Shown here piece after piece: positions 2,765-49,852 of a stretch of DNA of 64,000 bases. The first letter of the stretch is position 1. Every line of letters starts with the position of its first letter. The notes below the pieces were generated by a model that saw only the letters and a program-made list of their open reading frames with translations, searched no databases and had not been told where the DNA came from. Where the stretch lies: positions 62,001-126,000 of the forward strand of contig NZ_JAFFZS010000002.1 of NCBI RefSeq assembly GCF_016921115.1, read 5' to 3'. Source of the DNA: Streptomyces actuosus (GTDB lineage Bacteria; Actinomycetota; Actinomycetes; Streptomycetales; Streptomycetaceae). The translations under genes and the position numbers were made by a program.

Positions 2765-3112
2765 ATGGCAGAGGTTACGCAGGCTCGCGCCGCATCGGAT
2801 AGCCCTCCCGTCGATGGGCGGGAGCAGGCCCGGCGGGCCGCGAACCGTGGCCTCCAGGAGCACGTGGCGACGTGCGAGCAGTGCGTGGACGACGTCGGCC
2901 AGTGCGAGACCGGGATGGCGTGGACGCGGCTGATGCTGGCGGCCCCGGTGAAGATCTGCGTGCGCTGCGACAAGCCGGTCCGACCGGGGCAGGAGTACGT
3001 AGCGGTGGACCACCACAGTGCGAGCGGCGCCGGCACGACGGTCCACGTCCACGCCCAGCGGTGTGTGCCGGTCCCGCGGCAGACGTACTCCAGCGGCCCA
3101 TACGGCCGGTAG
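2765..3112 (+). CDS. Cys-rich hypothetical protein with zinc-ribbon-like pairs
   Basis: A 115-residue protein. Cys pairs at about residues 37/40 (CEQC), 47 and 65/68 (CVRC), plus several His residues at 84-98, look like metal-binding knuckles. There is no membrane segment. The ATG has a GGAG site six bases upstream. It is probably mobile-element cargo: it sits alone between the regulator module and the tRNA-Lys gene and is followed by a hairpin. Function unknown; zinc binding is inferred only from spacing. Confidence 0.6.
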   Translation: MAEVTQARAASDSPPVDGREQARRAANRGLQEHVATCEQCVDDVGQCETGMAWTRLMLAAPVKICVRCDKPVRPGQEYVAVDHHSASGAGTTVHVHAQRCVPVPRQTYSSGPYGR

Positions 3113-3119
3113 AGACCGG

Positions 3120-3152
3120 CGGCCGTCCCTGCCCCCGTAGGGGACGGCCGTC
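3120..3152 (+). terminator. hairpin after Cys-rich gene
   Basis: CGGCCGTCCC and its complement GGGACGGCCG face each other across a loop of about 10 bases, eight bases after the stop at 3112. There is no clear T-run, so efficiency is uncertain. Confidence 0.5.
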
Positions 3153-3204
3153 TCACGCTCCCTGCGCTGGTCATCGGGCGAGGCCGTAGGCGTGGGAGAG
3201 GCGA

Positions 3205-3342
3205 GCGGCCCGCCTGACGGCAGATCAGGGGGCGGGCCGCCCGCGCTACGGGCCCTGGCCCGCTCATCGTTGAGGAACGGGCCCGACCGACACGAGAGCG
3301 GCCCCGGCCGGCAACTGCAGAGTCAACCGGCCGGGGCCGCTC
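3205..3342. repeat. cluster of strong inverted repeats
   Basis: Three perfect hairpins occur in succession: arms 3205-3214/3231-3240 (10 bp), 3249-3254/3257-3262 (6 bp), and 3296-3311/3327-3342 (16 bp with a 15-base loop). No gene fits between them. They lie between the phage-like DNA and tRNA-Lys. They may be stacked terminators or recombination-site structure. Confidence 0.6.
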
Positions 3343-3413
3343 CATATCTTGATCGTCCGCACTTCGGTTGAGCTTCGACTGAGCTCACGATCACCCACGC
3401 CCCGAAAGTGCCG

Positions 3414-3450
3414 TCAGCCCCAGTCCAGATGCACTCTGAGCTGGGGCTGA
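3414..3450 (-). terminator. hairpin downstream of tRNA-Lys
   Basis: TCAGCCCCAG at 3414-3423 and CTGGGGCTGA at 3441-3450 are perfect 10-base arms. They lie immediately 3' of the minus-strand tRNA-Lys, so this is its probable terminator. Confidence 0.5.
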
Positions 3451-3454
3451 GTCG

Positions 3455-3527
3455 TAGGCCCTGTGGGACTCGAACCCACAACCAATGGATTAAAAGTCCA
3501 CTGCTCTGCCAATTGAGCTAAGGGCCC
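3455..3527 (-). tRNA. tRNA-Lys(TTT)
   Basis: A 73-base cloverleaf on the minus strand. The acceptor arm GGGCCCT/AGGGCCT has one wobble pair at the end, the anticodon loop reads CTTTTAA with anticodon TTT, and the T-arm contains GGTTCGAGTCC. No CCA is encoded. Its 3' end faces the phage-like DNA at 1-3112, the geometry expected if that DNA integrated into the 3' end of this gene. Confidence 0.95.
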
Positions 3528-3532
3528 AGGCG

Positions 3533-3920
3533 ATGTCGCCTCCCCGAGCATAGCCGGACGTGGCCGCGTCGCCGATCGGGTATCGGTGACACGGCCCCGA
3601 CCGGGGTGCGAAGGCGCCGTAAGTGTCGGGGATCAGCCGGTTCGCACGCCCGGCGCGCCCCGGCGTGCCCCGACGCGCCCGCCGTACTCGCCCATGGCTG
3701 CCGTTCCCTGAACCGGTGCCAGGTGCTCCGGAGCCGTCGGGCGGAGCCGGCCCGTGGAGCCGCTCGGTGGCCTTCCTCACGCCGTCGGGCCGCCGGGCGG
3801 CAGCGGGTCGTGGCGCGGCCCGACGGCCGCGGTCCGGTGCGGCCCACCACGGACGCGGTGGAGGCGCCGACGGGCGGGAGACCACCGTCCAGCCGGAGGG
3901 CGACCGCGCGGGGTGCGGAA
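3533..3920. other. intergenic, no gene seen
   Basis: About 390 bases between tRNA-Lys and the helicase terminator. The open frames here are GC-driven and lack ribosome sites or conserved-looking sequence. The tRNA-Lys promoter should lie at the left end. Confidence 0.5.
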
Positions 3921-3964
3921 ACGGCACAGCGCCGCGCCCCGGGCAGGGCGCGGCGCTGTGCCGT
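3921..3964 (-). terminator. long hairpin after DEAD-box helicase
   Basis: Perfect 19-base arms at 3921-3939 and 3946-3964 with a six-base loop. On the minus strand it follows the helicase stop by 29 bases and is trailed by a short T-run. It is a very strong intrinsic terminator. Confidence 0.8.
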
Positions 3965-3993
3965 TCAGGTGCCGTCGGGGTCCGCCGGCCGGG

Positions 3994-6174
3994 TCAGCCG
4001 TTGCGCTTCCAGCGCGGCTTGTCCTCGCGGCGGCCGTGCGAACCGCCGGTGCGGTGGTCGTCGCGGCGGCCGTAGGGGCGCTCGTGGCCGCCCGAGCGGA
4101 ACCCGGGGCGGTCGTCGCGGCGGTCCCGGTTGAACGGGCGGTCGCTGCCGCGGTGCCCACCGCGGTCGTCCCGGCGGAAGCCGCCCCGGTCGCCACCGCG
4201 GTCGTCACGGCGCTCGAAGGAACGGCCACCACGGTCACCACCGCGGTCGTCACGGCGCTCGAAGCCACGCTCCCGGTCCCGGCGGAAGCCGCCCCGGTCA
4301 CCACCCCGGTCGCCGCCGCGGTCGTCGCGGCGCTCGAAGGAACGGCCACCACGGTCACCACCGCGGTCGTCCCGACGGTCGAAGGAGCGGTCGCGGTCGA
4401 ACGGACGGCGGTCGCCGCCGCGGTCGTCGCGGCGCTCGAAGGAACGGCCACCACGGTCACCACCGCGGTCGTCACGGCGCTCGAAGCCACGCTCCCGGTC
4501 CCGGCGGAAGCCGCCCCGGTCACCACCCCGGTCGCCGCCGCGGTCGAAGCCACGGTCCCGGTCCCGGTTGAACGGGCGGCGCTCGTCGCGCTCGCGGCGC
4601 TCGTACGGCGCCGCGGCCGGCGTACGCTCGGCGCGCTCCGCCCGGTCCACGTCCTGGGCGGCAGGCTGCTCCGGCACCGACGCCCCGGTGGCGGCCTCGG
4701 CCGCGGCCAGGGCGGCCTCGGCGACGGCGGCGGCCGGGTCCTCCCCACGCTCACGGGCGACCCGGGCGACGAGCCGGTCGGCCTCCTCGCGCAGCTCGGT
4801 GGCACGGCGCTGGGCGCGGTCGAGCTGCTTGTTGAGCTGGGCGACCTCGCGCTCGGCCTGCGCGGCGGCGTTGCCCGCGGACTCGGCCTGCACCTCGGTC
4901 ATCGAGCGGGCGCCGGTGATCTCGGCGACCTCCGGGTCGAAGGCGGCACCGCCCTGGATGATGTGGCGCGCGGCGTCGACGCCGGCGTCCTCCATGAGGC
5001 GGAAGATCTGGCGGCGCTGGTGCGGCAGGGACAGCGACACGACGGTGCCGGTCCGGCCCGCACGCGCCGTACGGCCCGCACGGTGCAGGTAGTCCTTGTG
5101 ATCGCCGGCCGGGTCGACGTTCAGGACGAGGTCGATGCCGTCGACGTGGATGCCGCGGGCGGCGACGTCGGTGGCGACGAGCACGTTGACGTACCCGTCC
5201 TTGAAGTCCGCGAGGGTCCGGGTGCGGGCGCCCTGCGTCATGCCGCCGTGCAGCGCGTCGGCCGTCACGCCGGCGTCGCGCAGCTGCTCGGCGACGCGGT
5301 CGGCACCGAGCTGGGTGCGGACGAAGATGATGGTGCGGCCCTTGCGGGAGGCGATCGCGGCCGTGACCGGGGCCTTGTCCTTGGGCTTCACGACGAGGAT
5401 GTGGTGCGACATGGTCGTCACCGCGCCCTGGGCGGCGTCCACCTCGTGGCTGACCGGGTCGTTGAGGTACCGGTCGACGAGGGTCTTGATCTCGTTCTCC
5501 ATCGTCGCGGAGAACAGCATGCGCTGACCGCCCGCCGGCACCTGGTCCAGCAGCTCCGTCACCTCGGGCAGGAAGCCCAGGTCGGACATCTGGTCGGCCT
5601 CGTCCAGGACGGCGACCTCCACGTCCTGCAGGGAGCAGGCGCCGCGGTTGATGATGTCGCGGAGCCGGCCCGGGGTGGCGACCAGGACGTCCACGCCGCG
5701 CTCCAGGGCGTAGATCTGGTTGCCCATGGAGGTGCCGCCGCACACGACCTTCATCTTCAGGCCGAGCTGGTCGCCGTAGGGCTGGAGGGCGTCCGCGACC
5801 TGCATCGCGAGCTCACGGGTGGGGGTGAGGATGACCGCGCGAGGCTTGTGCTTGCGGGTGCTGCCGCCGGCCAGCCGGGCCAGCGTGGGCAGACCGAAGG
5901 AGAGGGTCTTGCCGGAGCCGGTGCGGCCACGGCCGAGGATGTCCTTGCCGGCCAGGGCGTCCGGGATGGTCGCGGCCTGGATCGGGAAGGGGACCGTCAC
6001 GCCGTTCTGCGCGAGCTTGCGCACGACGCCCTCGGGGAGACCGAGGTCGGCGAAGGTGACCTCGGGGGTCTCCTCGCGCCCGGCCTCGGCGGTCTCCTCG
6101 ACGGCCGCCGCGGTGGCTTCCTCGGCCTCGGTGGCCTCGGGCACGACGGCGTGATCAGTGCTGGAAATGGACAT
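3994..6174 (-). CDS. DEAD-box ATP-dependent RNA helicase with RGD-rich tail
   Basis: A 726-residue RNA helicase that unwinds or remodels RNA using ATP. All core motifs are visible: the Q-region near 60-70, GRTGSGKT at 83-90, PTRELA at 118-123, TPGR at 167-170, DEAD at 191-194, SAT at 222-224, ATDVAARG near 335-342 and HRAGRTARAG at 365-374. Residues 410-500 hold a coiled coil. From about 500 to the end the chain is Arg/Gly/Asp-rich with repeated RDDRGG units, probably RNA-binding. I chose the ATG at 6174 because the reading upstream of it is non-conserved. The DNA of the tail contains a 117-bp perfect direct repeat. Role is probably cold adaptation, ribosome assembly or RNA decay. Confidence 0.95.
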   Translation of the reverse strand: MSISSTDHAVVPEATEAEEATAAAVEETAEAGREETPEVTFADLGLPEGVVRKLAQNGVTVPFPIQAATIPDALAGKDILGRGRTGSGKTLSFGLPTLARLAGGSTRKHKPRAVILTPTRELAMQVADALQPYGDQLGLKMKVVCGGTSMGNQIYALERGVDVLVATPGRLRDIINRGACSLQDVEVAVLDEADQMSDLGFLPEVTELLDQVPAGGQRMLFSATMENEIKTLVDRYLNDPVSHEVDAAQGAVTTMSHHILVVKPKDKAPVTAAIASRKGRTIIFVRTQLGADRVAEQLRDAGVTADALHGGMTQGARTRTLADFKDGYVNVLVATDVAARGIHVDGIDLVLNVDPAGDHKDYLHRAGRTARAGRTGTVVSLSLPHQRRQIFRLMEDAGVDAARHIIQGGAAFDPEVAEITGARSMTEVQAESAGNAAAQAEREVAQLNKQLDRAQRRATELREEADRLVARVARERGEDPAAAVAEAALAAAEAATGASVPEQPAAQDVDRAERAERTPAAAPYERRERDERRPFNRDRDRGFDRGGDRGGDRGGFRRDRERGFERRDDRGGDRGGRSFERRDDRGGDRRPFDRDRSFDRRDDRGGDRGGRSFERRDDRGGDRGGDRGGFRRDRERGFERRDDRGGDRGGRSFERRDDRGGDRGGFRRDDRGGHRGSDRPFNRDRRDDRPGFRSGGHERPYGRRDDHRTGGSHGRREDKPRWKRNG
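4208..4546. repeat. 117-bp perfect direct repeat in helicase tail
   Basis: Bases 4208-4324 and 4430-4546 are identical, offset by 222 bases (74 codons, in frame). A shorter third copy of the same unit lies between them near 4329. They encode the RDDRGGDRGG tail blocks. Confidence 0.85.
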
Positions 6175-38412: not shown

Positions 38413-40725
38413 CTACTCGTTGGTGAACTCCTCCACCACCGTCGCTCCCAGCTCCCGCACGATGAGCTCGTGGCCGGAGAGGGCCGACTCGTTGAGGTCG
38501 GGGTCGTCGTCCTCGGGGATGTCGTCCTCGAGAGCGACCGGGGGCGGCGGCTCGGGGGCCGACGGCCGGGGCGCCGGGGCGGGCGCGGAAGCCTGCGGGG
38601 CTGACGTCGGCGGGCCCGCGGACCGTGACGGCGCCGGGGCGGGGGCAGCCGGGCGCGCCGGAGCCGGTGCAGGGGCGCCGCCGTAGCCGCCGCCTCCGCC
38701 GTGGCCGCCGGTCGGCGCGGGGGACGTGCCGCCCGAGGGGTCGACGATCGCCTCGATCTTCCAGTGGACGTTGAACTGCTCTGCCAGTGCCTGCCGCAGG
38801 ACGTCCTCGCTGCCGCTGCCGGCGAAGTTGTCGCGGGCACCGGCGTTGACGAAGCCGATCTGGAGGGTGGTGCCGTCGAAGCCGGCCACCTGGGCGTTCT
38901 GGCTGAGCAGGATCCAGGTGAAGCGGCGGCGGTTCTTCACCGCCTCCAGGATGTTCGGCCACAGGGCACGGGGGTCGAGGCCACCGGCGGGCGGCGCGGA
39001 CACCGGCTGGGCCGCGGGAGGTGCGGCGGCCGGAGCGGGGGCCACCGGGGGCCGGGCGGGGCCACCGGGGGCGGGTGCCGGAACCGGGCGGGCGCCACCG
39101 CCCGCGGGGGCTGCCGTGGGCCAGCCGCCGGGCCGCCGCCCGCCGCCGGCGGGGGCCGCGGTGGGCCAGGCGCCGGGGGCCGGCTGGGCCGGAGCGGCAG
39201 GGGCGGCGGTCGGGGGTGCCGACGCGGCGGCCGGAGGTTCCGCGGCCGCGGGCGGCGCGGCGGGCGCAGGAGTGCCGGATGCGGGGGTGCCCGGTGCGGG
39301 AGCCGGGGAGGGCACCGGTGCGGGGCCTCCCGAACCGCCGGCCGGCCCGGCGGGGCCGCCGTCGCCGGGGGGACCGCCGGCACCCGGGCCGACGGGCGGG
39401 GCGCCCGCGCCCGTGCCGGTGGCGCGCACCGCAGCGCGGGCCGCGGCGACGCCGCCACCGGGCGGAACCGGTGCACTGCCGGCAGCGGCGCCGGCGACGC
39501 CCGCGCCGTGGGCCTCGGGCCCGGGCACGTACCCCGCGGCGGGCAGCCCGGCACCCGCGGAGAAGTTCACGCCGCGCTCCAGCCGGTCGAGGCGGGCCAT
39601 GACGGAGCGCTCGTCGCCGTAGGCCCCCGGGAGGAGCACGCGTGCGCAGATGAGCTCCAGCTGGAGGCGGGGCGAGGTCGCGCCGCGCATCTCGGTGAGG
39701 CCCTCGTTGACCAGGTCGGCGGCGCGGCTCAGCTCTGCGGCGCCGAAGGAGCCGGCCTGGGCCTGCATGCGCTCGACGACGTCGGCCGGGGCGTCGATCA
39801 GCCCCTTCTCGGCGGCGTCCGGCACGGCCGCGAGGATGACGAGGTCCCGCAGCCGCTCCAGCAGGTCGGCGACGAAGCGCCGCGGGTCGTTGCCGCCCTC
39901 GATGACGCGGTCCACGACCTCGAAGGCGGCGGCGCCGTCCCCGGAGACGAAGGACTCGACGACGGAGTCGAGCAGGGAGCCCTCGGTGTAGCCGAGCAGG
40001 GCCGTGGCCATGGCGTACGTCACACCGTCCTCACCGGCGCCGGCGAGGAGCTGGTCCATGACGGACATCGAGTCACGCACGGACCCGGCACCGGCGCGCA
40101 CCACGAGCGGCAGGACGCCGTCCTCGACGGCGATCTCCTCCTTCTGACACACCTCGGCGAGATAGTCCCGGAGGGTCCCCGGAGGGACCAGCCGGAACGG
40201 GTAGTGGTGGGTCCGCGACCGGATGGTGCCGATGACCTTCTCCGGCTCGGTGGTCGCGAAGATGAACTTCAGGTGCTCCGGAGGCTCCTCGACGACCTTC
40301 AGCAGCGCGTTGAAACCGGCCGACGTGACCATGTGGGCCTCGTCGATGATGTAGATCTTGTACCGGCTGCGTGCGGGCCCGAAGAAGGCCTTCTCGCGCA
40401 GGTCACGGGCGTCGTCCACACCACCGTGCGACGCGGCGTCGATCTCGATGACGTCGATGGAGCCCGGTCCGTTCCTGGCCAGGTCCCGGCAGGACTCGCA
40501 CTCCCCGCAGGGGGTCGGCGTGGGCCCCTGCTCGCAGTTCAGGCAGCGGGCGAGGATGCGGGCGCTGGTCGTCTTGCCGCAGCCGCGCGGACCGCTGAAC
40601 AGGTACGCGTGATTGACCCGGTTGTTCCGCAGCGCCTGCTGCAGCGGGTCGGTGACATGCTCCTGCCCGATGACCTCGGCGAACGACTCCGGGCGATAGC
40701 GGCGGTACAGCGCGAGAGACGACAC
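38413..40725 (-). CDS. dnaX: DNA polymerase III subunit gamma/tau
   Basis: A 770-residue clamp-loader subunit. The AAA+ core has GPRGCGKTTSARILARCLNCE near 45-65, a four-Cys zinc module (CLNC...CGECESC), and IIDEAHM near 125. Domain III ends near 365. Residues about 405-620 are an Ala/Pro/Gly linker, then a tau-like C-terminal domain and an acidic tail. The GTG start at 40725 gives the conserved SSLALYRRYRPESF opening. A TATAAC box only nine bases upstream suggests a leaderless transcript. No programmed frameshift signal is obvious. Confidence 0.95.
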   Translation of the reverse strand: MSSLALYRRYRPESFAEVIGQEHVTDPLQQALRNNRVNHAYLFSGPRGCGKTTSARILARCLNCEQGPTPTPCGECESCRDLARNGPGSIDVIEIDAASHGGVDDARDLREKAFFGPARSRYKIYIIDEAHMVTSAGFNALLKVVEEPPEHLKFIFATTEPEKVIGTIRSRTHHYPFRLVPPGTLRDYLAEVCQKEEIAVEDGVLPLVVRAGAGSVRDSMSVMDQLLAGAGEDGVTYAMATALLGYTEGSLLDSVVESFVSGDGAAAFEVVDRVIEGGNDPRRFVADLLERLRDLVILAAVPDAAEKGLIDAPADVVERMQAQAGSFGAAELSRAADLVNEGLTEMRGATSPRLQLELICARVLLPGAYGDERSVMARLDRLERGVNFSAGAGLPAAGYVPGPEAHGAGVAGAAAGSAPVPPGGGVAAARAAVRATGTGAGAPPVGPGAGGPPGDGGPAGPAGGSGGPAPVPSPAPAPGTPASGTPAPAAPPAAAEPPAAASAPPTAAPAAPAQPAPGAWPTAAPAGGGRRPGGWPTAAPAGGGARPVPAPAPGGPARPPVAPAPAAAPPAAQPVSAPPAGGLDPRALWPNILEAVKNRRRFTWILLSQNAQVAGFDGTTLQIGFVNAGARDNFAGSGSEDVLRQALAEQFNVHWKIEAIVDPSGGTSPAPTGGHGGGGGYGGAPAPAPARPAAPAPAPSRSAGPPTSAPQASAPAPAPRPSAPEPPPPVALEDDIPEDDDPDLNESALSGHELIVRELGATVVEEFTNE

Positions 40726-40734
40726 GCCTACGAG

Positions 40735-40740
40735 GTTATA
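40735..40740 (-). promoter_or_regulatory. -10 box of dnaX, probably leaderless
   Basis: TATAAC on the minus strand ends nine bases before the dnaX GTG, so transcription should begin at or within about three bases of the start codon. No canonical -35 is seen. Confidence 0.4.
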
Positions 40741-40925
40741 GGCGCCCGCCGACAGAGCGGACCCGCGGACGGGGGCCGACCCCGGCCCCGCGGAGCCCCG
40801 CCGCGGAACGCACCCGGCACTCCGCGGACATGCCTGGTCGGCGGACCCCGGGCGAACCCGGCCAGGAGCGAACCCGACCCGCCGGGGCCCACACCGGCGC
40901 GTGCGATCCGTCGGGCAACGCAAGC

Positions 40926-41011
40926 GCCCCCCACGCACCCGCCAGAGCCGACCTACCCTTGCTGCCTTCCGGCCCTGGGGGAGTTCAGTCAGATAGCGCC
41001 GCGTGAGGGGC
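40926..41011 (-). ncRNA. ffs: signal recognition particle RNA (small bacterial type)
   Basis: An 86-base RNA. It contains the conserved SRP loop GGAAGGCAGCAAGGGUAGG, which binds Ffh. The ends GCCCCTCACGC and GCGTGGGGGGC pair over 11 bases, which fixes the boundaries at 41011 and 40926. It guides membrane-protein ribosomes to the translocon. It lies between dnaX and tRNA-Ser(GGA), as is usual in Streptomyces. Confidence 0.93.
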
Positions 41012-41087
41012 TTCGCACACAGTACCCGATGCCGGCCGGGGGGTACGAGTTCGCGAGCACTCCCCTCGGTCATGTAATGTTTCCGGC

Positions 41088-41175
41088 GGAGGATTCGCCT
41101 AGAGGCCTAGGGCGCACGCTTGGAAAGCGTGTTGGGGGCAACCCCTCACGAGTTCGAATCTCGTATCCTCCGCCA
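41088..41175 (+). tRNA. tRNA-Ser(GGA)
   Basis: An 85-base class II tRNA plus encoded CCA. The acceptor GGAGGAT pairs with ATCCTCC, the anticodon loop TTGGAAA gives GGA, and the variable arm is long. Its 3' half (41120-41169) is repeated in degraded form at 42475-42525, so this gene is the attachment site of a former element. Confidence 0.95.
41120..41169 (+). other. attachment site (attL), tRNA-Ser 3' half
   Basis: The segment from the anticodon loop to the acceptor stem matches 42475-42525 over about 50 bases with about three mismatches and one single-base insertion. The intact tRNA carries this copy. Confidence 0.75.
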
Positions 41176-41194
41176 GTGCCTCACCGGGCACGAT

Positions 41195-41232
41195 GTCGAA
41201 GGGCCCCACCGTTCGCGGTGGGGCCCTTCGAC
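41195..41232. terminator. hairpin with TTCG loop after tRNA-Ser
   Basis: Perfect 17-base arms (41195-41211, 41216-41232) closed by TTCG. It lies inside the element and cuts off the 3' end of the integrase remnant. Confidence 0.75.
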
Positions 41233-41235
41233 GTT

Positions 41236-42123
41236 GTCGGACCTGGCTTCCCGAAGCAGGCGCTCCCAGACGTGGAAGTCGGCGTTCGGACCGAGGGGAC
41301 CGCCGGTCGGCGAGGCGAAGACGTATCCCTTGCCCTCCCAGTCGGCACCGGCCGCGATCCGCTTCCGCTCCTGGGATCCCGGTGCCGGCACAGGATCTTG
41401 ATCAGCGGATCGGGCAGGCCGATGGTGCGCCGTCCGGCTCGCGCCGGGTCTGCTCCCGCCTGGGGCAGTGGCCCGCCTTCCGACCGCACGGGTCGACACC
41501 GCAGCCACGCGCGTACCCGGGGCGCAGCTGTTTCTTGCGGATGCGAACGTATCCCGCGTCGAGGTCGACGTCTTCCGGGGCAGCCCGAGCGCTTCCCCTT
41601 GCCGCAGTCCGAGAGCGAGGCGACGCCCCATCGCGCACTGTTGCGCAGCTTGGACGCCTCCAAGGGCAGGCTCCCGCAGCTCTTCGATCGTGTACGGCTC
41701 GATGTTCTCCTCTCACAGGCGCGGCGCCTTGGCGATCTCGGCCGCGTTGGTCGGGACGTGACCGCGTCGAACCGCCTCACCCAGGGCGACCCGGATGGTC
41801 CGGTGAACGTGGCACGCGGCGGCGGAACTCCCGGAGTCCTGCACCTGCATCCTCCGGTGGAAGCGCTCCAGATGCTCGGGCTCCGGCCGATCGAGCCGGT
41901 GAGCGCCCGGGGCGGCGGCGAGGTGAACCCGAACATCCACCCCGTAGCTGTCATACGTGTTCTCGGAGACGTACGGCTCGGCGATGTTCTCGACCCAGTG
42001 CTCAAGCCGGCTCTGGACGGTCCAGCTGCTGCCCGGCTTCCTGAGCTTCTTGGCGTCCCGGGCCCGCTCCATCTCGCGGACGGCCTCGGTGACCTCGGCC
42101 CGCTCGCCTACGCCTACACGCAG
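41236..42123 (-). pseudogene. decayed tyrosine site-specific integrase
   Basis: The minus strand reads as a broken phage integrase. The N-terminal SAM-like part is intact from about 42123: AEVTEAVREMERARDAKKL, EPYVSENTYDSYGVDV and HRTIRVALGEAVRRG. It then hits a stop at 41713. The same frame continues with EPYTIEELREPAL and RLALGLRQGEALGL, which holds the first catalytic Arg. Frameshifts then scatter DVDLDAGYVRIRKKQL, RRTIGLPDPLIKIL and KGYVFASPTGGPLG over the other two frames. The HxxR...Tyr end and the true start are missing. It must be inactive. Confidence 0.85.
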
Positions 42124-42191
42124 ACGGGGGGCCTGGGACGGGCCATCCCCCGGCCCGGGAACTGTCCGACCTGCTCGCCGGCCGACTCACG

Positions 42192-42440
42192 GTGGCCTTC
42201 ACCGAACGCGAGAGCGACTACCTCGGTGTCTACTTCCTCGCCACCCTCGCCGACACCACCCGCATCCATGTCCAGCCGAACTCCATTCCCGGGGACGATG
42301 GCGAAGACGATCTCTACAAGGGTGAGTATCCCGAGGTGCCGGTACTCCTCCTCGTCACATCACCGGGTTCCACCGAGCCCCTCAATCGCGCGCTCTCGGC
42401 CGTCGAAGGACTGACCCAGCTCAGATCATCTCGAAGTTGA
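42192..42440 (+). CDS. orphan protein fragment inside the tRNA-Ser element
   Basis: An 82-residue reading frame that looks genuinely coding (FTERESDYLGVYFLATLADT, GEYPEVPVLLLVTSPGSTE) but matches no family I know. The frame stays open upstream as RELSDLLAGRLTVAF, so the GTG at 42192 is probably not the original start and the gene is truncated at its 5' end. No good ribosome site is present. It lies within the att-bounded remnant opposite the integrase. Confidence 0.4.
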   Translation: MAFTERESDYLGVYFLATLADTTRIHVQPNSIPGDDGEDDLYKGEYPEVPVLLLVTSPGSTEPLNRALSAVEGLTQLRSSRS

Positions 42441-42474
42441 GAACCGCCGATCCACAGGTATTGACAGTTACCCG

Positions 42475-42525
42475 TTGGAAAGCGCATTGGGGGCAACCCC
42501 CTCACGAGTTCGATTCTCGTATCCT
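42475..42525 (+). other. attachment site (attR), degraded tRNA-Ser 3' half
   Basis: A copy of the tRNA-Ser(GGA) 3' half, with CA instead of TG after the anticodon stem, an extra C in the variable arm, and GATT for GAAT in the T-arm. It ends at CCT and lacks the last acceptor bases. It marks the far end of the former element. Confidence 0.75.
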
Positions 42526-42536
42526 TGTCAGCCCAG

Positions 42537-42566
42537 CGGGCCGGACCACGAAAGCGGTCCGGCCCG
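42537..42566 (+). terminator. hairpin beyond attR, probable original tRNA-Ser terminator
   Basis: CGGGCCGGACC (42537-42547) and GGTCCGGCCCG (42556-42566) pair perfectly. Before integration this stem would have directly followed tRNA-Ser. Confidence 0.6.
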
Positions 42567-43100
42567 ACCTCGCAGGCGTTGCGGTGGGACGCGTGGACCG
42601 CCGGGCGGCACCGGGGTCGCCCGCATCGGGGGCGGAGGGCGGGCGGTCGACGGCGGTGCTCCGTGACGGCGGACCGACGTGTCGGTCTCCGAAGGGCTGC
42701 CGCGCACACCTCGGCCGGAACTGGATCTGCTTCGATTTCCATGGCCTGCGACTCCGGGTGAACTCCCGGTCATTCACCTCTTCACCACGAGACAGTCCGA
42801 TCCCACCATGCACGCGCAGAAACAGAACCCGGATCTTCGTCGGCCCCTTCGGCGGTCGCTCCCTGAAGTCGCCGCCATTGGTCGCCTCTCCGTCCGGACA
42901 GGGAGGCAGAAGAAACCATTCGGCATACCGGCATTGTCGTGAACGAATCAATAAAGGGAGAGGTCGGGCCGGTGACCATTTTCTGCTGAGTTCCTTGAGA
43001 TCCCGTTGCCAGGACCACCCCGCCTTGCTAGAGAATGCTGCCGAGCATGAGCCCATGGGTGAAAAGCACATCATGCGTGGAAGCGGGGGGAGCAAGAGGT
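42567..43100. other. intergenic, no gene supported
   Basis: About 530 bases right of attR, with moderately lower GC at 42900-43030. Overlapping open frames on both strands lack ribosome sites and conserved-looking sequence. The promoter of the gene at 43101 should be near the right end. Confidence 0.4.
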
Positions 43101-43814
43101 ATGAGTACCGCAGGGGGAGGCGATGGAACGGGTTCGGGAGGTACTCCGCCGGGCAGGACCGGCGGGTGGCTGACTCCGGCGCGGGCAACCGTGATGGGAC
43201 CTGTCATGGCCGCCGTCGTCGCAGGCATCCTGGCGCTCGTGAACGTCACGCATGCACCTGGTTCGCCGGGCGATGATCCGTCTCACGGTGTAGTCGACGA
43301 CGAGGAAACCGTCACGCCGCACGTGCCCGACACTCCACCGTCGACCGCCCCGTCCACGCCCCCTCCGCAGGCCAGTGGTTCGGCCGGCGGGGCCCATGGC
43401 CCGACCGCCGTGTCGGCCGCGGTGCGCTGGACGGGCGTAGTGGATCTCCCGCTGAGACAGGACAGCGTCGCCGACCTGGGCCTGGATCTCGACCTCGACA
43501 AGCCGGCGCTGGGTCCGGTGGGAGCCGATCTGGTGACCGGCTGGACCGTGTCACCGGCCGTCATCGTCAGCAGCGGCCGCGCCTTCGCGGTGGCGGGGCA
43601 GGCCGAGGACGTCGAACGCGCGACGTGCGAGGAGCGACTCCCCGGCACCTCGAACGGGGACCTGTGGATCGATGTGTGGCACGGGAACCAGCCGGTCGGC
43701 ACGTACTGCTTCGCCACGACCGAAGGGGGTGTCGGAGTCTTCTCGATCAAGGGGGTGGGCCCGGACGAGTCCTCGATGGAATACGTGAGAATCCAGGTCG
43801 TCAGCTGGGAATGA
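43101..43814 (+). CDS. membrane-anchored extracellular hypothetical protein
   Basis: A 237-residue protein. A Gly/Thr-rich head of 30 residues precedes one membrane helix at about 31-48. A Pro/Ser/Thr stalk follows at 60-95, then a 140-residue extracellular domain with two Cys residues (about 180 and 207) that may form a disulfide. The ATG at 43101 has GGGGGAG/AGAGG upstream. It lies 40-75 bases ahead of the zinc-protease lipoprotein gene on the same strand. I do not recognise the domain. Proximity to the island suggests recent acquisition, unproven. Confidence 0.65.
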   Translation: MSTAGGGDGTGSGGTPPGRTGGWLTPARATVMGPVMAAVVAGILALVNVTHAPGSPGDDPSHGVVDDEETVTPHVPDTPPSTAPSTPPPQASGSAGGAHGPTAVSAAVRWTGVVDLPLRQDSVADLGLDLDLDKPALGPVGADLVTGWTVSPAVIVSSGRAFAVAGQAEDVERATCEERLPGTSNGDLWIDVWHGNQPVGTYCFATTEGGVGVFSIKGVGPDESSMEYVRIQVVSWE

Positions 43815-43890
43815 CGCGCACGGTGCCGCACCCCCCTGTCCACGCCTTCGAGAGGTGACCACCCCGACCTCGGACCCGGATGGAGTGTCA

Positions 43891-44643
43891 GTGAAGGCAT
43901 CCTCGCATCTGTTCGCCGCACTCGCCGCATTCACGATCGCCGCCACCGCCGGTTGCGGAGGCGGCGGGAACACATCGGACGACGCTTCTGTGCACAAGAT
44001 GCCGACGTCCGACGAGGCCGTTTCCGATGGCAGCGGCTCCCTTCCCGATAGCGCGACCGAAGATGCCGTCCCCCCGGGATCCCCGTCGGAACTCGACGTT
44101 GCATGGATGGCCGAGACGAAGGACGCCGTGACCGTCGTGAACGACTTCTGGCAATCACGCTGGGACACCTACTTCACCGGAACGTACGAACCGCCGACGG
44201 TCTTCGGGGAGTACGTGGCTGGCACCCCCGACGCGCCCACCTGTGGGGGCCGACCTGCCGTCCCGAACAACGCGTTCTACTGCCCTTCCGGGGACTACAT
44301 CGCCTGGGATGCCCAACTGATGCGTGAGGGCTACGCGAAGGGGGACTCCATGGTCTACCTGGTCATCGCACACGAATGGGGCCACGCGGTTCAGCACCGC
44401 GTCACGGGCCTGACCGCCGAGGCGCCAGAGCTCCAGGCGGACTGCCTGGCCGGGGCCACCCTGTTCGGCTCCGAGGAACTGCAGTTCGAGACCGGCGACA
44501 CCGAGGAACTGGCGCAGACCCTGACAGACCTGGCCGACAGGACGCCGTGGACCGAGTCCGAGGACCACGGTGACGCCGAGGAGCGCATCACCGCGTTCAA
44601 CAACGGGGGGAGCGGCGGGGTCGACGCATGCCTGCCGAGGTGA
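43891..44643 (+). CDS. neutral zinc metallopeptidase lipoprotein (PF04228-like)
   Basis: About 250 residues. A signal peptide ends in the lipobox TAGC, so the Cys near residue 22 is lipidated. The catalytic segment VIAHEWGHAVQHR contains HExxH, and ELQADCLAG carries the third ligand, as in the YpfJ/neutral zinc peptidase family. A Cys pair (TCGGRP, FYCPSG) may be a disulfide. The GTG at 43891 has GGAG five bases upstream; an in-frame GTG at 43855 lacks spacing. It probably trims proteins at the outer membrane face. It pairs with the anchored protein upstream. Confidence 0.85.
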   Translation: MKASSHLFAALAAFTIAATAGCGGGGNTSDDASVHKMPTSDEAVSDGSGSLPDSATEDAVPPGSPSELDVAWMAETKDAVTVVNDFWQSRWDTYFTGTYEPPTVFGEYVAGTPDAPTCGGRPAVPNNAFYCPSGDYIAWDAQLMREGYAKGDSMVYLVIAHEWGHAVQHRVTGLTAEAPELQADCLAGATLFGSEELQFETGDTEELAQTLTDLADRTPWTESEDHGDAEERITAFNNGGSGGVDACLPR

Positions 44644-44703
44644 CCGGGTTTGGGGAGTCGGGACGCCGTCCGGCGACCGCGGGTGTGAGGGAGCAGAGCG
44701 CGC

Positions 44704-45336
44704 TCAGGTGAGGCCGAAGTACGTGCTGATACCGCCGAGCATGAGCTGGATGCCGATGGTGGCGACGAAGAGACCCCCGAAGCGGGTCATGATGGCCACG
44801 GTCGAAGGCGACATGTTCATACGGTTGACCAGCATCAGGTGCCCCACCGGGATGAGGGCCACGGCGATGCCCACGGCGATGAGCGCGGCGACCGGGCCGG
44901 ACCATCCGCTTCCGGTGGAGGAGATGGTGATCACCGTGGTGATGGCGCCCGGGCCCGCCATGAAGGGGATGGCGTAGGGCACCACGATCGAGGTCTCGGC
45001 CGATTCCGGCGCCGGTTCCTCGTGGGCGGAGGCGCCACCCTGCGCGCGGGGCTGCTGGCCGCCGAAGAGCATCTCGAACCCCATGAGGCCCAGGACCAGT
45101 CCACCGGCCACCCCGAAGGCCCCGAGGTTGATGCCGATGAGGTCGAGCAGCTCCCGGCCGACGAGAGCCGAGCCACCCAGGGTGATGCCGACGACGGTCA
45201 TGATCCGGACGACGTACTCGCGCCGCCGCTCGGGCTCGTGCTCGGTGATCAGGCGGAAGAAGATGGCCCGGGTGAACGGATCGACGAGGAGGACCACGGC
45301 GATGGTCGCCTGGACCGTGAGCTCAAGTGTGCTCAT
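44704..45336 (-). CDS. MarC family (UPF0056) membrane protein
   Basis: A 210-residue protein with six membrane helices and the family hallmarks VVLLVDPF near 15, GGLVLGLMGFEML near 80 and PFMAGPGAITTVI near 125. A hydrophilic loop with His/Glu separates helices 3 and 4. The family was once linked to multiple antibiotic resistance in E. coli, but that link is disputed. Transport of small organic solutes is likely. It converges with the lipoprotein gene. Confidence 0.9.
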   Translation of the reverse strand: MSTLELTVQATIAVVLLVDPFTRAIFFRLITEHEPERRREYVVRIMTVVGITLGGSALVGRELLDLIGINLGAFGVAGGLVLGLMGFEMLFGGQQPRAQGGASAHEEPAPESAETSIVVPYAIPFMAGPGAITTVITISSTGSGWSGPVAALIAVGIAVALIPVGHLMLVNRMNMSPSTVAIMTRFGGLFVATIGIQLMLGGISTYFGLT

Positions 45337-45805
45337 ACCGTCCTCTCCCGCCGGTTCGTACCTGTCGGTCCTGCGGGGAACCCCGCCGGGGGCGTCTTCC
45401 CGGGGAACTGCGCGCCGCCCGCTTCGTCGTCATGCCGCCGCGCCCGCGGCGCGCACCGACCGCCTCGACGGGTGCCCCGTCTCTGGTACGGCCGGCCGGC
45501 CGTAGGCCCTGGTCCCGGCCCGGCGCCGCCGGATCCGGGGCCGCCGCTGGGGCAAGGGCCGGCGGACGCGGCGTACAAGGCTGACGCATCCGGCCTGGCA
45601 GGGGCCGCGGTCGTGCAGGTGGCCGTCCCCGGCCGCCCGGTGCGGAGGACCGGACCGGGAACGCCCGTCGGCACAAGACCCCGTGCAAGGCGGGACCCCG
45701 GTGCGGGGCTGGATCAGGACGGCCGCCGGTCGGCTCCCGCCCCCGGTGCGGGGCCGGGCAAGGGCGCCGGTGAACTCCGGTCCGGGTGCGGATGGGGAGC
45801 GCCGG
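45337..45805. other. intergenic, very GC-rich
   Basis: About 470 bases of low-complexity CGG/CCG-rich DNA with open frames in every direction. I see no ribosome site, hairpin or protein-like sequence that supports a gene. Confidence 0.4.
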
Positions 45806-46864
45806 TCACCTGCGGTCCGCGGTCCGGGACCGGTCGCCCGGATCCGTCACCCGCAGCTGGCGGAGCAGGCCGCCGTAGTCCTCGTCGTCGTCGCTGATGA
45901 AGATCGGGAAGGAGCCGTCGACCAGGCCGACGCCCTCGACCTTGAGTCCGGAGCTGCGGGCGAGTTGCTGCGGCGGCTCGACCGGACGCAGCTCCGCGCC
46001 GAGGGCCCCGCCGGGGACGACCGTGGCCGCGCGGTACACGGCGCTGTCGAAGGGACCGAGGTCGCCGGGATCGTAGGCGGAGGAGATGTAGAGATTGCCC
46101 TCGTTGTCGATGTCGAGGCCCGAGGCGGGACGCGCGCCCGGCGGTTCGGGCGCCGTGAAGGGGACCGACGTCCACTGCGTGCCGAAGCTGATCGTGCCGT
46201 TCTTGCCGACCTTCAGGCGGGTCATGTTGATGGTGGTGGTGTCACTGCCCTGCGCCCGCTCGGCATAGACGAAGTAGTCCTTCCCGAGGACGGTCGCGAC
46301 GGCCGTCGCCTCGACGTTCACGAGCGGTTCTGGGGTCTCGGGCCACGGCACCGAGCCGGCGATCTCGACCTTCAGGTGGTCGTCCCACCGGGCGAGATAG
46401 ATGGTGGGGTCGGGGTCGTCGCCGTCGGCGTTGCTCTCGACCAGGAGAGCCTCGTCACGGCCCGGCAGCCGGGCGATGCTCTCGAGGTCGTTCGGCACGG
46501 AGGGGAACCCGACGTCGGCGTTGTCGAGGTTCCGGACGATGATCCCGTCGGTATCGACGGGGGTCCGCACGATCGAGAGACGGGGCAGGTCGCGCTCGGC
46601 GTCGTTGTCCCTCGCGTCGTGGCAGATCAGGAAGACCTCCTGGGTCTCGCCGTAGCCCGCCGCCGCGGTGGGCGTCCGGTCGGTGGCGAGCCAGGCGATG
46701 CCGCTGAACTCGCGCGGCGCCCGAATCACCGGCCCGGCGGTCGACGCGACGCCGGAATCACCGGCGTCGGAACGGGATTCGACGCCACAGGCGGCCAGCG
46801 CGAGAGCACTCAGCCCCGCGACAACCGGCAGCAGACGCCGTCCGGGCAAACAACACCGCATCAT
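45806..46864 (-). CDS. lipoprotein with predicted beta-propeller-like body
   Basis: A 352-residue lipoprotein. The signal ends with LAACG, so Cys at about 26 is lipidated. The mature part has repeated beta-rich blocks such as SGIAWLATDR, DLESIARLPG and SGLDIDNEGNLYISSAYD. These resemble the loops of esterase-like or NHL-type propellers. Two adjacent ATG codons (46864, 46861) follow GGAGGAG; the second has better spacing. It is the last minus-strand gene of the sortase/ECF sigma cluster and may be its target. Function unknown. Confidence 0.75.
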   Translation of the reverse strand: MMRCCLPGRRLLPVVAGLSALALAACGVESRSDAGDSGVASTAGPVIRAPREFSGIAWLATDRTPTAAAGYGETQEVFLICHDARDNDAERDLPRLSIVRTPVDTDGIIVRNLDNADVGFPSVPNDLESIARLPGRDEALLVESNADGDDPDPTIYLARWDDHLKVEIAGSVPWPETPEPLVNVEATAVATVLGKDYFVYAERAQGSDTTTINMTRLKVGKNGTISFGTQWTSVPFTAPEPPGARPASGLDIDNEGNLYISSAYDPGDLGPFDSAVYRAATVVPGGALGAELRPVEPPQQLARSSGLKVEGVGLVDGSFPIFISDDDEDYGGLLRQLRVTDPGDRSRTADRR

Positions 46865-47247
46865 GTCTCCTCCCGCCGCGCAGCGGGCCCGTCTCCCGGA
46901 CCCGCTCTGGAAACTAGGGCAAAGGACATGCGGCACCGCGCAGGCGTCTCGGCGTTTCGACAAATCCGGAAGGTCCCTTTCCTCCCATGGCCGCGTGCTG
47001 CCGGTACGCGGGACGTCACGGGGGGCCGGATCCGGGGATGCGGTGGCGGGGCGTGCCGCGCGGCGGAGCCGTCGTGGCGCCGGTCGCCCACCCGACCCCG
47101 GACACGGCACCGGCCGCCCGCCGCCCACCCGGCCGCCGGTGCCGCGGGCGGGGTGGCGGTGGCGCTGGCGGGCCGGGAGGCGGCGAGCCGGGAGGCGGCC
47201 GGGACTCGGAACGGGCAGGGCTCAGGGAGCGGCGCCGACGCCGCGGC
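46865..47247. other. intergenic, GC-rich
   Basis: About 380 bases between the lipoprotein gene and the membrane-protein gene. The sequence just upstream of 46864 is less GC-rich (TTTCCTCCCATGG) and may hold a promoter. Nothing else is seen. Confidence 0.35.
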
Positions 47248-47739
47248 TCAGGAGCCCGGGCGGATCCGGTCGGTCCGGCGGGCGTCCGGTTCCGGGGTGG
47301 TGCGGTCCACGGGCGAGGGGACGGCCGCCGCGTCTCGCCGGGAGGTGGGGGTTCCGGTGCCCCGGGGGTCCGTGGAGGGGCGGGGGGACGCGCCTTCCCG
47401 CGGTGCCGACGAGGGCGACGGCGAGGGGGTGGCGGCCGGTGGGGCGGTGGGCGCCGTGCGACCGGTCGCGGGCGGGGGCGCCAGCGGCGGGGCGGGGGAG
47501 CTCGGCTGCGCGGGTCTCGCCAGGTACAGCGGTACGGCGACGAGGAGCGCCACGGCGCAGGAGGCGCCGACGGCGGCCGTGGTGCGCAGCAGTCTGCGGC
47601 GGGACGCGGCCCGGCGGATCGCCCGGTACCGGCCGGGAGGCGGGGCGAGGTGGCCGGGGGCGGGGCGCAGGATCACCGCGAGGGCGTCGTCCGATCCGGG
47701 GTCCGGGGCGCCGGGGTCGTCGTCAAAGCGAGTGGTCAA
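47248..47739 (-). CDS. single-pass membrane protein, putative anti-sigma partner
   Basis: A 163-residue protein. The first 45 residues are cytosolic and Arg-rich (RYRAIRRAASRRRLL), one helix spans about 53-72, and the rest is a Pro/Ser/Thr extracellular stalk. Its start overlaps the sigma factor gene by 17 bases, the usual arrangement of an ECF sigma and its membrane regulator. It lacks a recognisable zinc anti-sigma motif (HxxxCxxC), so the anti-sigma role is inferred from context alone. Confidence 0.6.
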   Translation of the reverse strand: MTTRFDDDPGAPDPGSDDALAVILRPAPGHLAPPPGRYRAIRRAASRRRLLRTTAAVGASCAVALLVAVPLYLARPAQPSSPAPPLAPPPATGRTAPTAPPAATPSPSPSSAPREGASPRPSTDPRGTGTPTSRRDAAAVPSPVDRTTPEPDARRTDRIRPGS

Positions 47740-48214
47740 GGCTTCTCCTCAGGTGGACGCGGAGCAGTTCGCGGGCCGCGTGCAGGTCGGCCTTGACGGT
47801 TCCCTCCTTGCGACCGGTCAGCACGGACACCTCCCGGATCGGCATGTCAGCGTAGTAGTGGAGGAGGATCGGGACGCGCAGTCGCTGCGGCAGCGACTGG
47901 ACCAGCAGGCGTACCGAGGGGTCCGTCGGCTCGGTGCGGGAGTCGAGGGCGGCCTCGGTCGTGGCCCGGCGCATCGCCCGGCGCTCGCGCTCGAGTCTGC
48001 GCCAGTGGTCCCGGACGAGGTTGGCCGCGGTGACGTAGAGGAAGCCGCGCGGCTCCTCGACGCGGCTCCAGCGCGCCCAGAGGCGGGTGAACGCCTCCGA
48101 GGCGATCTCGTGGGCCGTCTCGTCGTCGTCGACGAGGCGGCGGCACCAGCCGGCGAGGCGCGGGTAGAGGGCGGCGAAGAGTTCCGACGCTGCCGTGTCG
48201 CGGGACCGTTTCAA
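47723..48214 (-). CDS. ECF-type RNA polymerase sigma factor
   Basis: A 163-residue extracytoplasmic-function sigma. Region 2 covers about 8-75, with DDDETAHEIASEAFTRLWARW and the LYVTAANLVRDHWRR helix. Region 4 covers about 105-160, with LPQRLRVPILLHYYADMP and EGTVKADLHAARELL. I prefer a TTG start at 48214, because GGAG sits five bases upstream and homology begins there. An ATG at 48298 would add an Arg-rich leader. It probably drives genes of this surface cluster. Confidence 0.88.
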   Translation of the reverse strand: MKRSRDTAASELFAALYPRLAGWCRRLVDDDETAHEIASEAFTRLWARWSRVEEPRGFLYVTAANLVRDHWRRLERERRAMRRATTEAALDSRTEPTDPSVRLLVQSLPQRLRVPILLHYYADMPIREVSVLTGRKEGTVKADLHAARELLRVHLRRSLDHSL

Positions 48215-48309
48215 CGCTCTCCAGGGTCGTGAGCCGTCGCGGGGACGCTTGCGGGGAGGGATGCCGGGCCGACGGCGTACGTTCCGCGGGCCCGGCACCC
48301 CGTGGGGGG

Positions 48310-48966
48310 TCAGGGAGCCGTGGCGGTGCTCAGCACGGCGAACACGATCACGTTGTCCCGGTACCCGCCGCCGGTTCTGGGGCCGCCGCAGGTGATCAGG
48401 CGCAGTTCCGGGCGGTCCACGTCGCCGTAGACGTCCTGCGTGGGGAAGTCCGCCTTGGCGGTGGTGCGTACGGCGGTGACGGCGAAGCGGGCCGTGGTGC
48501 CGTCGTCCCGGCGTACCGCGACGCGGTCGCCGCGCCGCAGTCGTGCGAGGTCTCGGAACACGCCGTCGCCGTAGGTGCCGACGGTGACATGGCCGAGGAC
48601 GACCGACGGACCGACCTCGCCGGGGGTCGGCGAGTGGCGGTACCAGCCGGCCCGGTCGTTCGCCGTGACCGGGGGCACCTCCACGCTGCCGTCCTGCGCC
48701 AGTCCGAGCGGGACGAGCGGGGTGTCGACGTCGATGGCCGGGATCAGCAGCGCGACCGGAGCCGAACGCCCGAGAGCGGGCGTCCCGTTCGCGGACCGGC
48801 CCGGCGACGAAGGGGTGCTGCCCGCGCCCTCCGCGCTCCCCCGGCCCCGGTCGCCCCTGGGGCGGCGTGCGGCCGTCGCCGGCTCGGCGGCGTGCCCGGC
48901 GCAGCCCGTGAGCAGCGCGGCCAGGGCAGCCGTGGTGAACGCCCGCCGGGACAGCGGGGTCGTCAT
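48310..48966 (-). CDS. class F sortase
   Basis: A 218-residue transpeptidase. The N-terminus is a lipoprotein-like or signal segment (LAALLTGCAG). The sortase barrel covers about 70-215, with a catalytic His in VVLGHVT near 125, the Cys in RLITCGG near 192, and the Arg in GGGYRDNVIVFA near 203. Class F sortases of actinobacteria anchor or link surface proteins. The start overlaps the stop of the upstream surface-protein gene (ATGA), which makes that protein its prime substrate candidate. Confidence 0.9.
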   Translation of the reverse strand: MTTPLSRRAFTTAALAALLTGCAGHAAEPATAARRPRGDRGRGSAEGAGSTPSSPGRSANGTPALGRSAPVALLIPAIDVDTPLVPLGLAQDGSVEVPPVTANDRAGWYRHSPTPGEVGPSVVLGHVTVGTYGDGVFRDLARLRRGDRVAVRRDDGTTARFAVTAVRTTAKADFPTQDVYGDVDRPELRLITCGGPRTGGGYRDNVIVFAVLSTATAP

Positions 48967-49358
48967 GCCCCCGTCGCCCGCCGGCGGCGTACGACGAAGA
49001 CGGTCGCGCCGCCCACGACGAGTGCCGCGGCGCCTCCGCCGATCAGGTCGCCCGCGTACCCGGACTGCGCGGTCGCCTCCGGCACTCCGGTGTCGGCGGC
49101 GCCGCGCGGCACGACGGAGACCTGGCCCCGGGGCCGCTCACCGGGGACGGAGGCGACGGGGCTGGGGGCTGGGCCCGCGTGGCCCGCGTCGCGCGTGGGC
49201 TCGGCCGGGGCGGGGCTGCTCGGGACGGCGCTGGGGACCGCGGTGGGAACCGGGCTGGGGGTCGCGTCGTCGGCGAGTGCGGTGGCGGGGCTCGCGATGA
49301 CGGCGGCGCAGGCGAGCGCCAGGGTGCCGAGGACGGTTCGGCGCATCGAGTCACGCAT
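48963..49358 (-). CDS. putative sortase-linked surface protein
   Basis: About 131 residues. A signal peptide ends after ATALA. A Pro/Ser/Thr stalk follows, then a C-terminal sorting-like region: GAADTG, a 17-residue spacer, a membrane helix GGGAAALVVGGATVFVV, and RRRR. GAADTG loosely resembles LAxTG. ATG codons at 49376, 49358 and 49346 are possible; I chose 49358, with GAGAGAG eight bases upstream. It is the first gene of the cluster and directly coupled to the class F sortase. Confidence 0.7.
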   Translation of the reverse strand: MRDSMRRTVLGTLALACAAVIASPATALADDATPSPVPTAVPSAVPSSPAPAEPTRDAGHAGPAPSPVASVPGERPRGQVSVVPRGAADTGVPEATAQSGYAGDLIGGGAAALVVGGATVFVVRRRRATGA

Positions 49359-49376
49359 CGAGTTGCTCTCTCTCAT

Positions 49377-49566
49377 CGGGTCGTCCCGGTGTGCGACCGG
49401 GGCTGGGGGACGGATCGAGCGGAGAGACGAGGCAGCGAGGGGGTGCGTTGCAAAGAGAAGGCAAAGGCGTTCCCGGTGGTACCTGCGGGCAGCCGGCGTG
49501 GGCCTCGGGGACGGTGGTTCCGGCGACGGCGCCTTCGGTGGCGGGGCCGTCGGCCGGAGCGGCTCG
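49377..49566. other. intergenic between surface protein and tandem repeat
   Basis: No gene is supported. The left end should hold the promoter of the surface-protein/sortase operon. Confidence 0.35.
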
Positions 49567-49701
49567 CACGGGCGGCACGGGCGGCACGGGCGGCACGGGC
49601 GGCACGGGCGGCACGAGCGGCACGAGCGGCACGGGCGGCACGAGCGGCACGAGCGGCACGAGCGGCACGAGCGGCACGAGCGGCACGAGCGGCACGAGCG
49701 G
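49567..49701. repeat. 9-bp tandem repeat, 15 copies
   Basis: Fifteen head-to-tail units of CACGGGCGG or CACGAGCGG. The order is five GG units, two AG, one GG, then seven AG. The period of nine keeps all frames open, so both strands show artificial Gly/Thr/Ser or Val/Pro/Leu repeats. Confidence 0.95.
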
Positions 49702-49852
49702 CACGGGGGTGCCGGGGTGCGGGCGGAGCCGGGGTGCGGGCGAACAGGGGGTCCAGGCGGCGCGGGGGTACGCCCGGCACGGGGTGCCGGGGGCGCTGGG
49801 GACACAGGCGGCACGGAGGGGGTGCGGGCGGCACGGGCGCGGGTCGTCCGGC

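What the first reader, a model, noticed from the sequence alone, without database searches (positions are those of the whole stretch)
41120..42525. Decayed integrated element bounded by a duplicated tRNA-Ser 3' half
The 3' half of tRNA-Ser(GGA) recurs 1.35 kb downstream with a few changes, and an integrase remnant lies between. Repeat similarity is seen directly; that tRNA 3' ends serve as att sites is established. The island has shrunk to little more than int, so this is likely an old excision-deficient element.
Basis: partly seen in the sequence, partly recalled or inferred. Interest (0 to 1): 0.65.

Follow-up and report, generated by a model that had tools for sequence, protein, structure and literature searches.

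The report
Remnant of a tRNA-inserted mobile element
A Streptomyces chromosome carries the worn-out stump of a mobile element that once inserted into a serine tRNA gene, leaving a duplicated piece of the tRNA and a broken integrase; it is an ordinary example of a known kind at an insertion site already on record.

Summary
Observation confirmed. The 3' half of tRNA-Ser(GGA) (41120-41169) recurs at 42475-42525 (score 38; best of 1000 shuffles 16). Between them lie a broken tyrosine-integrase gene (41246-42102, minus strand), a 49-base scrap and the tail of a hypothetical gene (42151-42440). The integrase lacks about 50 N-terminal and 73 C-terminal codons and has a stop and frameshifts. Of 64 named loci encoding relatives, 53 have the integrase within 2 kb of a complete tRNA-Ser(GGA), 7 beside a partial copy, 4 neither. 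In S. bluensis it belongs to an 11-kb block with RepSA, FtsK-type and GntR genes, the plan of a pSAM2-type AICE. A hairpin like that at 42537 follows a complete tRNA directly in 11 of 33 chosen loci. No listed match in 391 other genomes joins this interior to the repeat. Best reading: a decayed AICE-type element. Which hairpin is the original chromosomal one remains uncertain. The site is tabulated in S. coelicolor as islet Gi-7 (PMC1934918), and AICE decay to a partial integrase between repeats is published (PMC9513070). New member of a known kind; low interest.

The parts
41088..41175 (+). tRNA-Ser(GGA), complete; its 3' half from 41120 is the tRNA-side att copy
   Evidence: ARAGORN; Rfam RF00005
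41120..41169 (+). tRNA-side att core (inside the tRNA)
41190..41237 (+). hairpin H1, likely the present terminator of the tRNA, inferred to have come with the element; 41088-41238 is identical to S. bluensis (L119)
   Evidence: I1; fold; identity; occurrence
41246..42102 (-). tyrosine-integrase pseudogene: both ends missing, one stop, several frameshifts, HxxR box and Tyr lost
42103..42151 (+). 49-base scrap, 86% identical to a repeat-coding stretch inside the L125 element (its frame looks like a TPR unit; that label is recalled) and 82% to two other places of this genome
42151..42440 (+). 3' part of a hypothetical-protein gene (relative of WP_266435491.1), first 12 codons missing; homology runs on to 42474
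42475..42525 (+). distal att copy: decayed tRNA-Ser 3' half
42537..42567 (+). hairpin H2, possibly the former chromosomal terminator of the tRNA

Best explanation
An element of the pSAM2-like AICE type integrated by its tyrosine recombinase into the 3' half (from the anticodon loop on) of the apparently single tRNA-Ser(GGA) gene next to dnaX. Its attP carried a copy of the tRNA 3' half followed by its own hairpin (H1), so the tRNA was rebuilt with the element's 3' end, and the 3' half that was there before, with its hairpin (H2), became the distal repeat. Deletions then removed rep, tra and most cargo and both ends of int, leaving a 1.35-kb stump; the unselected distal repeat drifted while the tRNA and H1 stayed intact. 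Shown: the repeat, the pseudogene, the same integrase family at the same site in other species, a complete AICE-like block with it in one relative. Inferred: order of events, origin of H1 and H2, immobility.
For: Repeat and its significance. The integrase stands within 2 kb of a complete tRNA-Ser in 53 of 64 named loci, beside a partial copy in 7, neither in 4; 55 of 64 show dnaX. S. bluensis L119: tRNA, int, RepSA (E=1.4e-117), DUF2637, FtsK_SpoIIIE (3e-35), GntR, second att 11.1 kb on. RepSA also in L125 and L177, 3 of 3 elements looked at. Int lesions. Of 33 chosen loci, H2 follows a complete tRNA in 11 and a bare 3' half in 11; 7 of the latter show the conserved right flank (window about 49851 on). 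L177 (Streptomyces sp. S.PNR 29) has the order tRNA-H1-int-att over 6.1 kb with a distal copy that begins like H2, although its hairpin is not complete.
Against: rep and tra are absent here, so AICE parentage rests on relatives, and Tra was found in only 1 of the 3 (not all frames of L125 and L177 were scanned). H1 is the commonest hairpin at complete tRNAs (79 of 108 copies), and G271 (L107) has H1 as the only copy, no integrase match and the right flank 2.6 kb away, so H1 may be chromosomal in some lineages. H2-like hairpins also stand next to integrases (L111; L207, L214; L124, L129). No locus showed a complete tRNA, H2 and then the right flank at close range; the one close-range site (G003, flank about 0.46 kb from the tRNA) has another hairpin.
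Confidence: 0.9

Rival explanations
1. Accretion: the distal repeat with H2 is not the original chromosome but the end of an earlier element, and part of the strain-specific 7.3 kb beyond it (42573-49840) came with that element, whose far att is lost. The 1.35-kb stump itself would still be a decayed element.
For: 42573-49840 has no BLAST match in 137 other stretches from this site. Stacks of three or four att copies occur (L104 four; L057, L152, L179 three). H2-like hairpins can stand next to an integrase (L111), and H1 is the commonest hairpin at complete tRNAs.
Against: No third att copy in 42570-64000. The stretch between the last repeat and the right flank varies elsewhere too (2.5-7.3 kb in L060, L061, L105, L206), so it may be variable chromosome.
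Confidence: 0.3
2. The parent was a prophage or satellite using this integrase type rather than an AICE.
For: The remnant matches PHROG 1 integrase and, over about 5% of the query, integrase genes of two Arthrobacter phage records.
Against: In the complete relative L119 the integrase stands with RepSA and FtsK-type genes, and RepSA is also in L125 and L177. Only 4 of 50,697 phage records match the region, each over about 5% of it, two of them through a tRNA.
Confidence: 0.1
3. The repeat is a partial tandem duplication of the tRNA with no integration, and the integrase scrap is a coincidence.
For: Only the similarity of two copies is seen in this genome.
Against: Bare 3' halves starting at about the same base occur at this site in many genomes, often with integrases beside them, and the two copies here are followed by hairpins of different families.
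Confidence: 0.02

Closest known systems
pSAM2-type AICEs (actinomycete integrative and conjugative elements)
   Same: Integrase family found with RepSA (3 of 3 elements looked at) and, in L119, an FtsK-type gene at this site; insertion in the 3' end of a tRNA; direct repeats
   Different: Here no rep or tra; integrase broken
S. coelicolor islet Gi-7 (SCO4060-4066), PMC1934918 Table 1 (passages seen)
   Same: Listed beside Ser-tRNA GGA with an 88-bp repeat (4 mismatches); that SCO4067 is dnaX is recalled
   Different: 5.2 kb and 7 ORFs; its gene content was not compared here
Decayed AICEs (PMC9513070, section 'AICEs are prone to decay' read in full, other passages)
   Same: Partial integrase, cargo scraps and two direct repeats left at an insertion site
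   Different: The example shown there is in a glycosyltransferase gene

Membership tests
AICE (self-transmissible) | Working tyrosine or serine integrase gene | tested here: not met
   Only a pseudogene of a tyrosine integrase, C-terminal end lost
AICE (self-transmissible) | Rep gene (RepSA, RepAM or Prim-Pol) | tested here: not met
   None in the 5 frames between the repeats that were scanned with Pfam (of those listed); the interior is 1.3 kb and taken up by int and the two scraps
AICE (self-transmissible) | FtsK/SpoIIIE-type Tra gene | tested here: not met
   As above
AICE remnant | Direct repeats with a tRNA 3' end on one side | tested here: met
AICE remnant | Integrase relic of a family that in relatives belongs to AICEs at the same site | tested here: met
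   gene content checked in only 3 relatives: RepSA in 3 of 3, FtsK-type gene in 1 of 3 (some frames of L125 and L177 not scanned)
AICE remnant | Site empty or otherwise occupied in relatives | tested here: met
Excision-deficient element | No excision in living cells | not testable with these tools
   Would need PCR for attB and attP

The most novel reading that the evidence does not exclude
Elements at this site carry not only the tRNA 3' half but a terminator of their own, and successive integrations swap the terminator of an essential, apparently single-copy tRNA gene. H1 would then have spread by integration, and in this strain the tRNA end with H1 would be the domesticated, still selected remainder of a dead element, the deletion in int ending at the edge of H1.
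Probability: 0.35. Interest if true: 0.4.

Novelty: new member of a known kind. Interest (0 to 1): 0.2.

Why it matters
It adds an old-looking scar to a recurrent insertion site in Streptomyces and shows what is kept (the tRNA 3' end and its hairpin) and what is lost when such an element decays. It changes no general idea.

Tried and rejected
Phage and plasmid collections gave no parent: 4 phage and 12 plasmid records match, none over as much as 80% of the region, the best 21%; 42110-42474 has no phage match. Rfam on 40500-43500 gave SRP RNA, tRNA and hits below the gathering score. A fuzzy regular-expression scan timed out and was replaced by BLAST. Telling chromosome from element by hairpin type alone was rejected, because H1, H2 and H3 all occur on both sides. 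Pfam found no family for the hypothetical protein's full relative. The plasmid region and the loci were fetched and not analysed further. Literature searches: (listings capped; 467 papers held the terms, 8 listed); no listed title is devoted to the tRNA-Ser(GGA)/dnaX site, and the table row in PMC1934918 is what I found. Papers: PMC3218068, PMC1934918, PMC6722414 passages only; PMC9513070 passages and section 14. No structure prediction or tree was made.

Full report
What is there. The window's tRNA-Ser(GGA) lies at 41088-41175, beside the small SRP RNA (40917-41015, minus strand) and dnaX (ORF 38413-41073, minus strand; Pfam). Its 3' half from base 41120 recurs at 42475-42525 with 3 mismatches and one extra base in 51 columns; the score of 38 compares with at most 16 in 1000 shuffles. 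The core pattern is found nowhere else in the draft genome.

The integrase. On the minus strand 41246-42102 matches integrases of other Streptomyces (DNA 80% to G007; 83% of residues over 119 aa to S. galbus and S. bluensis). Against the 416-codon S. bluensis gene about 50 N-terminal codons are missing; an in-frame TGA stands at 41713-41715; indels that change the frame lie near 41675, 41620, 41579, 41441 and 41380, and a group that adds up to three bases at 41819-41844 (exact gap places depend on the alignment); about 229 bases of the relative's sequence are lost between 41248 and 41238, with the last 73 codons or so. That part holds the HDARH box and the RYMH tyrosine of the relatives (their catalytic role is recalled). 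In contrast 41088-41238, the tRNA plus hairpin H1, is identical to S. bluensis.

The other scraps. 42103-42151 is 86% identical to a place inside the element of L125, and less so to two neighbouring repeats there, and 82% to two other places of this genome; the frame looks like a tetratricopeptide unit (recalled, not scanned), so it is weak evidence for the parent. 42151-42465 is 82% identical to a gene on an S. albidoflavus plasmid for a 108-aa hypothetical protein; the first 12 codons are missing here. Relatives of the protein occur in 10 of 149 other genomes. The homology runs to, or nearly to, the base before the distal repeat in the three homologous loci examined, none of which has an att core nearby; I cannot explain this.

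The site in relatives. Of 64 named loci that encode relatives of the integrase, 53 have it 233-1566 bases downstream of a complete tRNA-Ser(GGA), 7 beside a partial copy and 4 neither; 55 show dnaX. A long open frame with both motifs was found in 52 of 64 by a simple pattern test. In a separate search 34 of 120 other genomes of the genus have a relative of the 119-aa piece at E<=1e-25 (35 of 121 with the window's own); their positions were not all checked. L119 (S. bluensis) has tRNA, int, RepSA, DUF2637, FtsK-type and GntR genes and a second att 11.1 kb away, the plan of a pSAM2-type AICE (recalled; the modules are named in passages of PMC3218068). RepSA was also found in L125 and L177; no Tra among the few frames scanned of these two. 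L177's integrase is itself frameshifted.

Two hairpins. Of 138 stretches fetched at this site (window included), 133 hold a copy of the repeat that passed the test; tRNA-side copies are followed by hairpin families H1 (79), H2 (14), H3 (4) and other (11), bare 3' halves by H1 (26), H2 (16), H3 (10) and other (6) (families set by rough patterns of mine). Some genomes are there twice and the stretches were chosen, not sampled. Of the 166 following stretches 149 fold more strongly than 95% of 600 random stretches of the same loci. In the window H1 stands at the tRNA and H2 at the distal copy. Of 33 loci chosen mainly for H2, 11 have H2 directly after a complete tRNA (one of these, L214, with integrase pieces) and 11 after a bare 3' half; 7 of the last 11 show the conserved right flank. 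This fits H2 as the earlier end, but H2-like hairpins beside integrases, and H1 as the only copy with the right flank 2.6 kb away in G271, leave the question open.

Age and size. The core-to-core distance of 1355 bases is the shortest of 34 neighbouring pairs measured (median 6020); most stretches were cut at 20 kb or less, which hides long ones, and some genomes count twice. The next best integrase match in the genome is about 37% identical. 42573-49840 has no match in the other 137 stretches, so the limit of everything that arrived here is open.

What is known. Gi-7 of S. coelicolor, beside Ser-tRNA GGA with an 88-bp repeat, is in PMC1934918. Tandem AICEs at tRNA genes are described in PMC3218068, accretion and decay to a partial integrase plus repeats in PMC9513070. 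The finding is a sound, ordinary member of that kind.

Noticed in passing
42573-49840: About 7.3 kb with a Zn-peptidase-like gene, a MarC gene and a sigma-70-family gene has no BLAST match in 137 other stretches from this site, while the flank from about 49851 is conserved in many of them.
   Followed up: partly
L104 (G157:C2:4944000-4963999): Four copies of the tRNA-Ser 3' half in a row within about 9.8 kb, each with its own hairpin: a stack of small elements.
   Followed up: partly
L035 (G001:C161) 2891-4806: Another mini-element of 1.8 kb with integrase similarity between two att copies, similar in kind to the window's.
   Followed up: no
42465-42475: Homology to a hypothetical gene's 3' flank ends at the start of the distal att core, though the homologous loci have no such core.
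   Followed up: partly
49566-49705: Tandem array of a 9-base unit, 15.6 copies, 97% matches.
   Followed up: partly
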